Origin: an uncultured Hyphomicrobiales bacterium
GTDB taxonomy: Bacteria; Pseudomonadota; Alphaproteobacteria; Rhizobiales; Devosiaceae
DNA length: 64,000 nt
Direction: 5' to 3'
Assembly: GCA_903828145.1 (NCBI GenBank)
Contig: CAIKKY010000015.1
Coordinates: 1-64,000, forward strand
Under the pieces are notes generated by a model that was not told the origin of the DNA, did no database searches, and saw nothing but the letters and a program-made list of their open reading frames with translations. The translations under genes were made by a program, and so were the position numbers. Shown here piece by piece: positions 59,253 to 62,600 of the stretch. Numbering within the stretch: the first letter of the stretch is position 1; each line of letters starts with the position of its first letter.

Positions 59253-59345
59253 TCACTCGTGGTAGCTGTATGGGGCGATCGGCAGAACCCTGCAGATCGG
59301 CTCGACCCCACTAGCATCCCGGTGCTCATCTATGAAGGCGATCAT
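59253..59345 (-). pseudogene. 5' fragment of IS3-family OrfB
   Basis: ATG 59345 overlaps the orfA stop, as in IS3 elements. The frame reads [20 protein letters not shown] and then LPIAPYSYHE before a TGA at 59255-59253, only 30 codons. The DDE catalytic domain (about 250 residues) is absent. The element cannot move on its own. Confidence 0.85.
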
Positions 59346-59671
59346 CGCTTACACGGGCGGTCGAGCTCCGCGTGGGCGAAATATGCGGAGGCCTTGCGCA
59401 GGACCTCGTTGGCCTGACGCAGTTCCCGGTTCTCCCGTTCCAGGGACTTGAGCTTCTCGGCGATATCCGTCGTCACGCCGGCACGCTTGCCACTGTCGAC
59501 CTCGGCCTTCTTGAGCCAATCATTGAGGGTGTGCGCCGAACAGCCGATCTTGCCCGCCACCGACACCACGGCCGCCCAGCGGGCCGGATACTCCCCGCCA
59601 TGTTCCTGCACCATCCGCACCGCTCTGGCGCGTACCTCACCTGAAAACTTGCTCGTCGTCTTGCTGGTCAT
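59342..59671 (-). CDS. IS3-family transposase OrfA
   Basis: ATG 59671 ([20 protein letters not shown]) gives 109 residues: a helix-turn-helix ([28 protein letters not shown]), a leucine-zipper-like coiled coil ([27 protein letters not shown]) and the end ELDRPCKR. OrfA looks intact, but its OrfB partner is truncated, so it is part of a dead element. Confidence 0.92.
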
Positions 59672-59762
59672 GCTCCATCCTCGTCTGTTCAAGGTTGGGC
59701 ATACGGGCGCCTGCAGGTGGGACCCCGTTCCATCCAAGGGAAGACGAACCCGCTGAGTAGCA

Positions 59763-59856
59763 TGGGGCCCATCTGCGCCGCCTCCACAATGAACCTGAAC
59801 AGTTGCATGGGGCGCTCACTTTGCCGACCCCGCAGATCAAGGACAGGACAGTGACT
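59763..59856 (+). ncRNA. Possible bridge RNA of the IS110 element
   Basis: The left non-coding segment can fold with a GCGCC (59775-59779) / GGCGC (59811-59815) stem. Its 31-base loop contains ACAGTTGC (59799-59806), repeated at the right end of the element (60790-60797). IS110 elements are known to encode a bridge RNA whose loops pair with target and donor DNA. That this is one is inference from position and this repeat. Confidence 0.25.
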
Positions 59857-60786
59857 ATGTCCCACACCTATATCGGCGTCGACGTCGCAAAAGACTGGAT
59901 CGACGTGTTCGACCCTTCCACCTCCCGGCATGAAAGTATTCCAACCGAGAAACATTCCCTTCGAAGGTTTGCAGCGAGCGTTGGCCAAGCCATCGTCGTT
60001 CTTGAAGCATCTGGCGGCTATGAGCGCCCGATCCTCGCCGCCCTATCCGAAGCCGAGCGCCATGCGGTATGCGTGAACCCTCGACATGCCCGGGAATTTG
60101 CGCGCGCCACGGGACGCTTAGCCAAGAGTGACCGCGTTGATGCGACGGTCCTCGCTGAGATGGGAAGAGCCCTCGAGTTGGCTCCCGCTTCCCCACGCTC
60201 GGCAGAACGCCAGCGTCTGTCAGACCTCACCGCGCATCGAAACGATATCACCGCCATGATCGTCGCCGAGAAGAACAGGCTGAGAGCGACAACGGACCAA
60301 TGGATCCGACGCAGTATTCTGCAACATATGCGGGCCTTGCAGGGCAGCCAGGCGAAAGTCGAAGCTGAGATGGAAGCCGTGATCCAAGAGCACGATGACC
60401 TGCGCGACCAATATGCGCGTCTGCGCTGCGTCAAGGGGATCGGGCCCGTCATCGCGGCCACCTTGATCGCACAAATCCCTGAACTCGGTCAGCTCGATCC
60501 AAGACGGATCGCGGCCCTCGCCGGACTGGCCCCGTACGCGAACGGCTCAGGTCATCGACGCGGCAGGCGCAGCATCTGGGGAGGACGCGGGACACTGCGC
60601 CGGTGCCTCTATCTTGCCGCTCTTACCGCAAGCAGGTTTGATCCACGGTTCAACGCCTTTAAGGAACGCCTCATTGCAACTGGAAAGGCAAGAAAGCTTG
60701 TCATCGTGGCCTGTGCCCGCAAGCTGCTGACAGTTCTTGATGCGATGATACGGACCAAGACTGCCTACCAAGAACTCCCCTCCTGA
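59857..60786 (+). CDS. IS110-family DEDD transposase
   Basis: ATG 59857 follows GGACAGGACAG; 309 residues. The RuvC-like N-terminal domain has the acidic residues in YIGVDVAKDWIDV, VLEASGGYE and KSDRVDATVLAEMG. A coiled-coil linker follows. The Transposase_20 C-terminal domain has VKGIGPVIAATLIAQIPELG, IAALAGLAPYANGSG and RRGRRSIWGGRGTLRRCLYLAA, with the conserved serine in the segment GRRSIWGG. All expected parts are present, so it may be active. Confidence 0.94.
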   Translation: MSHTYIGVDVAKDWIDVFDPSTSRHESIPTEKHSLRRFAASVGQAIVVLEASGGYERPILAALSEAERHAVCVNPRHAREFARATGRLAKSDRVDATVLAEMGRALELAPASPRSAERQRLSDLTAHRNDITAMIVAEKNRLRATTDQWIRRSILQHMRALQGSQAKVEAEMEAVIQEHDDLRDQYARLRCVKGIGPVIAATLIAQIPELGQLDPRRIAALAGLAPYANGSGHRRGRRSIWGGRGTLRRCLYLAALTASRFDPRFNAFKERLIATGKARKLVIVACARKLLTVLDAMIRTKTAYQELPS

Positions 60787-60831
60787 AACACAGTTGCTAC
60801 TCAGGAGTTGGAGCCTCCAGCAAACCCGTTG

Positions 60832-61255: not shown

Positions 61256-62242
61256 ATGGGTGTTGCCTTGGACGTGAGTTTTGCTTTTGAGCCTGGCGCC
61301 CTCAATCGGGCGGCCTATCTGCGGGCCTCAGACACCGCACATCGCGATCCCGCCGCCCGAACAATGGTGTTCTGGCGCGGCAAGCTGCTGCTCAACGACG
61401 ACGGCCTGCCTGTCCGCGTGCCGCTCGATCATCCGGCTCTGGCATATTGTCGCGAGGCGCCAATCCTGCTCGGGCTAGGCGATGATGGCCCGCGCTTTGC
61501 TGTCGATCTGGCGCTGTTCCAGCCGCACGAGGATGCGGCGAGCGTCGGCTAGTTCACCGATGCGAGCCTGCAGGTCCATCCCGCCTTCCTCGGCGCGCAT
61601 TTCGGCGAAATCCGCGGCGTCATGGCCGGCCTCACCCCGCTCGATGGCGAATGCGTGGCAGTTGGGCGCGCCCTGCAAAGCTGGCACGGCACGCACCGCT
61701 TCTGCGCCAACTGCGGCGCCCCGAGCGTCGTCGAGCTTTCCGGCTGGCAGCGCAAGTGCCCCAGTTGCGCCACCCAGCATTTCCCCCGCACCGATCCGGT
61801 TGTGATCATGGCCATCACCCACGGCGATCGTCTGCTGCTGGGTGGCGGCCCCAGTTGGCCCGAACGCATGTATTCGCTACTCGCTGGCTTCGTTGAACCC
61901 GGTGAGACCATTGAAGCCGCGGTGCGGCGCGAAACGCTGGAGGAATCAGCCGTTCGCGTGGGCCCGGTCAGCTACGTCGCCAACCAGCCCTGGCCCTTCC
62001 CGATGTCGCTGATGTTCGGCTGCCATGGCGAAGCGCTGACCGACGCCATCACGATCGACCCGGTCGAATTGGCGGACGCGCGCTGGGTCAGCTGCGGCGA
62101 GGTGAAGGCGATCCTTTCAGGCGAACACCCCAGTATCGGCATACCACGCAAGGGCGCCATCGCCGGCGCCCTGATCACCGCGTGGGCCAAACGGCACCTT
62201 GCTGACGCCCGCAACATTTCCGCGCTGAGCGCCGGCAAGCGG
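61256..62242 (+). pseudogene. nudC: NAD+ diphosphatase gene interrupted by an in-frame TAG
   Basis: Two ORFs in the same frame (61256-61552 and 61622 onward) together form NudC. A lone TAG at 61550-61552 separates DAASVG from FTDASLQVHPAFLGAHFGEIRGVMAGL, which continues the family text. The zinc ribbon (CANCGAP...KCPSC), the Nudix box (GFVEPGETIEAAVRRETLEES) and the NudC array QPWPFPMSLM are present. The Nudix box ends EESAV instead of EExG, replacing a conserved Gly. The natural stop is missing and the frame runs on to 62587, antisense to the next gene. NudC hydrolyses NADH and removes NAD caps from RNA; this copy is probably inactive unless TAG is read through. Confidence 0.8.
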
Positions 62243-62475
62243 TTACTCCCCGAGTCCCTGCGGCAGCGTGCTTATGCGGAGCAGCACCTGCGGGTCGTCA
62301 TAGGTGTCGGTTTCAACGTCGATTTTGGCCCGATTGGCCCAGACACCCGACCGGCTGGGGCCAGCCGGTCGGCCGTGGCGATCGCTGCTTCGGCGCTTTT
62401 GGCCGCCTGTGGCGCGTACGGTTCGAGCTTTCGGCCTTTCTGGCGAAAACCCTGCACGAAATACATGATTGTCAT
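62243..62475 (-). pseudogene. Small conserved-looking gene with a one-base frameshift
   Basis: ATG 62475 is preceded by CAGGAG at 6 bases. The frame begins MTIMYFVQGFRQKGRKLEP, then QAAKSAEAAIATADRLAP. At a run of four C (62358-62361 on the plus strand read as GGGG) the sense moves to another frame: SRSGVWANRAKIDVETDTY, then DPQVLLRISTLPQGLGE and TAA. One extra base would restore a 77-aa protein of the type found in Devosia-like genomes (a YFVQGF... and ...VDVETDTYD pattern as I remember it). Either a recent mutation or a homopolymer sequencing error. Function unknown. Confidence 0.6.
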
Positions 62476-62600
62476 TGCAACTCCTGTGCCGCGTTGCCTG
62501 TCACCGCCCACGCCACAGCCTGCCATGAATTCCGAAGAGGGCAGCAAAGACTGCCCTCCGTCCCTCGCCACGATCAGCTGCCGCTGATCGGGCTCTCCAG

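What the first reader, a model, noticed from the sequence alone, without database searches (positions are those of the whole stretch)
59753..60804. IS110 element with possible bridge RNA whose guide matches its own right end
The 10-bp subterminal inverted repeats are perfect and the DEDD transposase looks whole. The left non-coding segment can form a stem with a large loop containing ACAGTTGC, also present at the right end. In IS110 systems such loops base-pair with donor and target DNA, which makes this a candidate RNA-guided recombinase.
Basis: partly seen in the sequence, partly recalled or inferred. Interest (0 to 1): 0.6.

Follow-up and report, generated by a model that had tools for sequence, protein, structure and literature searches.

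The report
RNA-guided IS110 element inside IS3

Summary
Empty IS3-family copies in the same genome place it at window 59680-60798: CT core, 1,117 bp, no target duplication, inserted 8 bp upstream of an IS3 orfA. The left end (175 nt before the transposase ATG) encodes a bridge RNA. A covariance model built only from relatives hits 59712-59856 at E = 1e-19. Target- and donor-binding loops show compensatory changes.

Its left arm (59753-59762) is the right target guide CTGAGTAG plus the handshake guide CA. Its right arm (60795-60804) is donor TG, core CT and flanking target ACTCAG. ACAGTTGC (59799-59806) is the left donor guide, and TCCATCC (59729-59735) is the left target guide. Across 16 related elements with different targets the guides follow their own targets (0 of 100,000 permutations as good). 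All five catalytic residues are present.

Verdict: RNA-guided recombinase interpretation supported, boundaries and 'inverted repeats' corrected. It is a new member of a known kind. ISEc21 is a known IS110 that targets IS3 elements, at another site. Expression and activity are untested.

The parts
59680..60798 (+). whole IS110-group element between its two CT core copies (59680-59681 and 60797-60798); 1,117 bp counting one core
   Evidence: empty-site comparison with IS3 copies at C11, C30 and C10 of the same genome
59682..59856 (+). left end (LE), non-coding, 175 nt
   Evidence: same layout in relatives
59712..59856 (+). bridge RNA, covariance-model hit
   Evidence: 77.3 bits, E 1.2e-19 with a model built from six relatives, window sequence left out
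59714..59775 (+). target-binding loop (stem, LTG, hairpin, RTG)
   Evidence: consensus fold and pair counts
59729..59735 (+). left target guide TCCATCC, identical to target top strand 59674-59680
   Evidence: sequence; covariation
59753..59760 (+). right target guide CTGAGTAG, complementary to CTACTCAG at 60797-60804
59761..59762 (+). handshake guide CA, complementary to donor TG (60795-60796)
   Evidence: role as described for IS621 in PMC11208158
59794..59847 (+). donor-binding loop
59799..59806 (+). left donor guide ACAGTTGC, identical to right end 60790-60797
59833..59841 (+). right donor guide (tentative, interrupted pairing with CTCGTCTG at the left end), followed by GA complementary to target TC
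   Evidence: inference from IS621 layout; one family-conserved pair is broken here (C at 59682 where relatives have T)
59857..60786 (+). IS110 recombinase (RuvC-like DEDD domain and Tnp domain), 309 aa
60787..60796 (+). short right end; 60790-60796 ACAGTTG is the left-donor half
59342..59671 (-). IS3-family orfA whose upstream region is split by the IS110 insertion; ALIL frameshift pseudoknot at 59271-59387
   Evidence: Pfam HTH_Tnp_1; RF01497 113.7 bits

Best explanation
An IS110-group insertion sequence with a left-end bridge RNA is inserted in the end of an IS3-family element. By analogy with IS621, the excised circle joins right end to left end at the CT core. A bridge RNA is transcribed from that junction and binds a recombinase tetramer. 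Its target-binding loop (LTG TCCATCC, RTG CTGAGTAG) pairs with the IS3 site CTCCATC-CT-ACTCAG, and its donor-binding loop (LDG ACAGTTGC plus an RDG) pairs with the circle junction ACACAGTTG-CT-CGTCTG. The DEDD/Ser composite site cuts after CT, and strands exchange with help from the handshake bases. Shown here: element boundaries, guide/target and guide/donor matches, guide/target covariation, conserved RNA structure, conserved catalytic residues. Inferred from IS621 and ISEc21: transcription, circle formation, catalysis and current activity.
For: Ends fixed by empty IS3 sites with only a CT overlap. The recombinase matches the solved IS621 and ISCro4 proteins (E about 2e-28) with D/E/D/D/S aligned. 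A covariance model trained without the window hits the left end at E 1.2e-19 and finds 16 further loci at E < 1e-4, the relic included. 27 pairs, 92% of cells paired, 10 pairs with two-sided changes, 0 of 500 shuffles as good on four of five measures. Guides match their own targets better than others' across 16 elements with distinct targets, 0 of 100,000 permutations for LT, RT or both. The Neotabrizicola relative, about 53% identical recombinase, has a very similar scaffold, a different target and matching guides, with its empty site found. Handshake bases pair with donor positions 6-7 in most relatives, including a CG/CG switch.
Against: No RNA or transposition data. The junction promoter is weak here (TTGCTC-17-CATACG, 3 of 6 in each hexamer) although the 17-nt spacing is kept in close relatives. 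The right donor guide is the least clear and has a mismatch where relatives pair (C at 59682). The second core base is not matched in LTG or LDG (CA against CT); for the LDG this agrees with IS621, where it stops at the first core base. Only one intact copy was found in the genome, and the close relatives are broken, so it may be silent. Single-sequence folding energy is unremarkable (z -1.5). L041 matches its right target only weakly.
Confidence: 0.95

Rival explanations
1. An IS1111-type element defined by true 10-bp subterminal inverted repeats at 59753 and 60804.
For: The arms are perfectly complementary.
Against: Empty sites show the right arm is mostly host flank. The long non-coding end is on the left (175 nt) and the right end is 10 nt, the opposite of IS1111 (PMC11208160). 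In relatives the arm sequence changes with the target: TTTGCCGGCA, AGAGCCGGCA, AGTGATAGCA.
Confidence: 0.02
2. The short matches are chance, or traces of the insertion itself, and the recombinase chooses its site by protein contacts alone.
For: Each guide is only 7-8 nt; a random 7-mer matches the left end perfectly with P about 0.015 and an 8-mer with about 0.004.
Against: Several words in the expected order and loop positions; conserved stems with compensatory changes; guides co-vary with targets over many independent lineages; relatives have been shown experimentally to use this RNA (PMC11208160, PMC11187229).
Confidence: 0.02
3. A bridge RNA system by ancestry but now defective: intact protein, guide RNA no longer made or unable to pair well with the donor.
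For: Mismatch at 59682, weak -10, single intact copy, the closest relatives with broken or truncated transposases.
Against: The ORF and all catalytic residues are intact, the target guides match, and one exact empty target remains in the genome (C11).
Confidence: 0.3

Closest known systems
IS621 (IS110 group, E. coli; PMC11208160, PMC11208158; PDB 8wt6)
   Same: DEDD/Ser recombinase, left-end bridge RNA with target- and donor-binding loops, LTG/RTG/LDG order, CT core, handshake guide after the RTG, promoter-like spacing across the circle junction in the near clade
   Different: recombinase only distantly similar (phmmer E 2e-28); RTG 8 nt instead of 4; target is an IS3 end, not the IS621 target; donor and scaffold sequences differ; a sister clade uses a CC core
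ISEc21 (IS110 type, PMC11187229)
   Same: upstream non-coding region giving a target-seeking RNA; target lies in IS3-family elements
   Different: ISEc21 targets the codons around the second D of the IS3 DDE domain; this element targets the region just upstream of orfA
IS1111 family, e.g. IS4321/IS5075 (reference 1 of PMC11187229)
   Same: DEDD transposase and RNA guidance; insertion into the ends of another mobile element (Tn21 terminal repeats)
   Different: bridge RNA at the right end and true subterminal inverted repeats, both absent here

Membership tests
IS110 group (left-end bridge RNA) | DEDD RuvC-like domain plus Transposase_20 (Tnp) domain with the catalytic serine | tested here: met
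IS110 group (left-end bridge RNA) | left non-coding end much longer than right | tested here: met
   175 nt against 10 nt
IS110 group (left-end bridge RNA) | structured RNA in the left end with two binding loops | tested here: met
IS110 group (left-end bridge RNA) | LTG/RTG complementary to the target and co-varying with it | tested here: met
IS110 group (left-end bridge RNA) | LDG complementary to the right end | tested here: met
   ACAGTTGC in both places; conserved in the near clade, so it hardly varies there and gives little covariation
IS110 group (left-end bridge RNA) | RDG complementary to the left end | tested here: inconclusive
   interrupted pairing with a mismatch at 59682; inspected by eye, not tested statistically
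IS110 group (left-end bridge RNA) | CT-like core, insertion without target duplication | tested here: met
IS110 group (left-end bridge RNA) | sigma-70-like promoter rebuilt at the circle junction | tested here: inconclusive
   17-nt spacing kept in the near clade, hexamers weak in the window element
IS110 group (left-end bridge RNA) | circular intermediate and RNA bound to the recombinase | not testable with these tools
   needs PCR, RNA sequencing or binding assay
IS1111 group | subterminal inverted repeats of 7-17 bp belonging to the element | tested here: not met
   right arm is core plus flank
IS1111 group | bridge RNA in a long right end | tested here: not met
   right end is 10 nt

The most novel reading that the evidence does not exclude
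In these bacteria several bridge-RNA lineages have independently turned their guides onto conserved parts of IS3-family elements: upstream of orfA (the window's lineage), the IS3 end about 20 bp away (G080/G177), the 3' end of orfA (Paracoccus L100), and elsewhere the DDE codons (ISEc21, literature). This would be recurrent RNA-guided hyperparasitism of one mobile element by another, here also separating the IS3 orfA from its end and probable promoter region.
Probability: 0.35. Interest if true: 0.5.

Novelty: new member of a known kind. Interest (0 to 1): 0.33.

Why it matters
It adds a compact, apparently intact IS110 recombinase with nearly all parts legible from sequence: an 8-nt right target guide, handshake bases that fit the IS621 strand-exchange model, and a target in a conserved IS3 end. 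It also shows a practical trap. A guide that pairs across the element-target junction looks like a perfect terminal inverted repeat and misplaces the element's ends; the same complementarity could be used to find bridge-RNA elements and their targets in raw sequence.

Tried and rejected
Rfam search of the window at gathering threshold and of the element at E up to 5: no bridge-RNA family, only ALIL in the IS3 and a sub-threshold antisense hit to sX15. The wide 17-sequence LE alignment gave almost no consensus structure because distant left ends do not align by sequence; the near-clade alignment was used instead. Single-sequence folding z-scores were unremarkable. The sigma-70 consensus scan of the integrated element found nothing, as expected if the promoter is only rebuilt in the circle. 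HMMER's pairwise alignment put N opposite the IS621 catalytic serine; the family alignment resolves this to S231. The tnp-less copy on C29 was considered as a mobile non-autonomous element and rejected: it lacks the right end and half the donor loop, so it is a relic. Viral contigs gave only distant relatives.

Full report
What is there. The window holds an intact IS110-type recombinase ORF (59857-60786, 309 aa) with both Pfam domains. It is similar over its whole length to the solved IS621 and ISCro4 recombinases. In an alignment of 21 family members with the IS621 chain, the IS621 catalytic residues D11, E60, D102, D105 and S241 correspond to D9, E50, D92, D95 and S231.

Where it begins and ends. 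BLAST of the region against its own genome found three IS3-family copies without the insertion, in which window 59650-59681 is directly followed by 60797 onward with a two-base overlap, CT. The uninterrupted site reads GCTCCATC-CT-ACTCAGGAGTTGGAGCC. The element therefore runs from the CT at 59680-59681 to the CT at 60797-60798. It sits 8 bp upstream of the ATG of an IS3-family orfA on the minus strand (HTH_Tnp_1; ALIL frameshift pseudoknot RF01497 at 59271-59387), so the orfA keeps its apparent ribosome-binding sequence but is cut off from the rest of its upstream end.

What the 'inverted repeat' is. The arms 59753-59762 (CTGAGTAGCA) and 60795-60804 (TGCTACTCAG) are real and perfect. But the right arm is two donor bases (TG), the core (CT) and six bases of target flank (ACTCAG). 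In the IS621 model (PMC11208158) a right target guide pairs with core plus right target on the top strand, and the next two bases are handshake guides that pair with donor positions 6-7 after strand exchange. CTGAGTAG+CA fits that exactly. In relatives with other targets the ten bases change but stay complementary to their own right junction: TTTGCCGGCA/TGCCGGCAAA in L011, AGAGCCGGCA/TGCCGGCTCT in L012, AGTGATAGCA/TGCTATCACC (9 of 10) in L106. Relatives whose donor ends in CG carry CG instead of CA as handshake in three of six cases (L016, L013, L070; not L059, L018, L077).

The other guides. TCCATCC at 59729-59735 equals the left target 59674-59680. A right donor guide is proposed at 59833-59841 followed by GA (complementary to target TC), but pairing is interrupted and a base conserved as T in relatives is C here (59682), so this guide is tentative.

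RNA structure. RNAalifold on nine near-clade left ends gives two stem-loops placed as the IS621 target- and donor-binding loops. Pair counting gives 92% paired cells, 10 pairs with two-sided changes and a covariation score of 0.351 against 0.142 in shuffles. No shuffle reached the observed value on four of the five measures, and sliding the partners destroys the signal. These sequences are related, so the shuffle counts are not probabilities. A covariance model built from six relatives, without the window element or its closest kin, hits 59712-59856 at 77.3 bits, E 1.2e-19, as the only window match up to E = 1. It also hits 16 of the 20 other loci searched, including the relic, at E < 1e-4.

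Guide-target covariation. Ends of relatives were taken from multicopy elements whose flanks diverge at the boundary and otherwise from the conserved end motifs. For each element the best ungapped match of its own 8-nt left and right target words anywhere in its left end was compared with the words of the other elements. With 16 elements of distinct target, mean own matches are 7.06 (right) and 7.00 (left) of 8 against 5.8 for others; 0 of 100,000 permutations reached the observed mean for either side or both. The left-end cut for single-copy relatives was set by the conserved TGT-like start, and relatedness among elements is not corrected for. Two elements (L041, L013) do not rank their own target first. 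The cleanest pair is Neotabrizicola shimadae (about 53% identical recombinase, two plasmid copies). Its scaffold is close to that of the window (GACCCCG[ACACATCC] ... CCCG[AGTGATAG]CATGGGG against GACCCCG[TTCCATCC] ... CCCG[CTGAGTAG]CATGGGG), its target is GGCACATCC-CT-ATCACC in a plasmid gene cluster, and the empty site with exactly that sequence exists in Martelella.

The lineage and its target. Elements with more than 70% identical recombinase, or their remnants, lie at the same IS3 site or, where one side is lost, next to its remaining half: L042, L047/L048, L049 (left end only), L040/L097 and L101 (right end), plus a transposase-less relic at C29 of the same genome. Those relatives have frameshifts, truncations or stops; the window copy is the only intact one found. 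One exact unoccupied target remains in the genome, in an IS3 copy on C11. A sister clade (G080/G177) mostly uses a site about 20 bp further along the same IS3 end, with a CC core. A more distant IS110 in Paracoccus (L100) sits in IS3 orfA with matching guides.

Comparison and novelty. All testable defining features of the IS110 group are met except the right donor guide and the junction promoter, which are inconclusive; IS1111 features are not met. Targeting of IS3-family elements by an IS110 element is already published for ISEc21, at another site (PMC11187229). Longer right target guides are also already reported (PMC11208160). The finding is therefore a new member of a known kind, well supported by sequence, with activity untested.

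Noticed in passing
G000:C29:185530-185739 (L002 1526-1690): Transposase-less relic of a related IS110 at the same IS3 target, about 88% identical left end; right end and half of the donor loop deleted.
   Followed up: yes
L100 (Paracoccus hibiscisoli genome, G578:C28:29118-30029): A different IS110 element inserted at the 3' end of an IS3 orfA (GGCGGAG-CT-CGACC), with bridge-RNA guides TGCGGAGCT and CGGTCGAG that match this site.
   Followed up: partly
L011, L029, L051 (G080, G177): Sister IS110 elements inserted in the same IS3 end about 20 bp away with a CC core, and guides matching that site.
   Followed up: partly
L047 around 2650-2745 (plasmids of NT-25 and NT-26): A second, different IS110-family element abuts about 10 bp from the first in the same IS3 end, so IS3 ends look like nested insertion sites.
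   Followed up: no
window 61256-62587: NADH pyrophosphatase (nudC-like) gene appears split: NUDIX-like N-terminal part ends at a stop at 61550, and zinc ribbon plus NUDIX domain follow in another ORF from 61622.
   Followed up: partly
window 59271-59737 (minus): IS3-family remnant with complete orfA and ALIL frameshift pseudoknot but no orfB found downstream; apparently truncated.
   Followed up: partly
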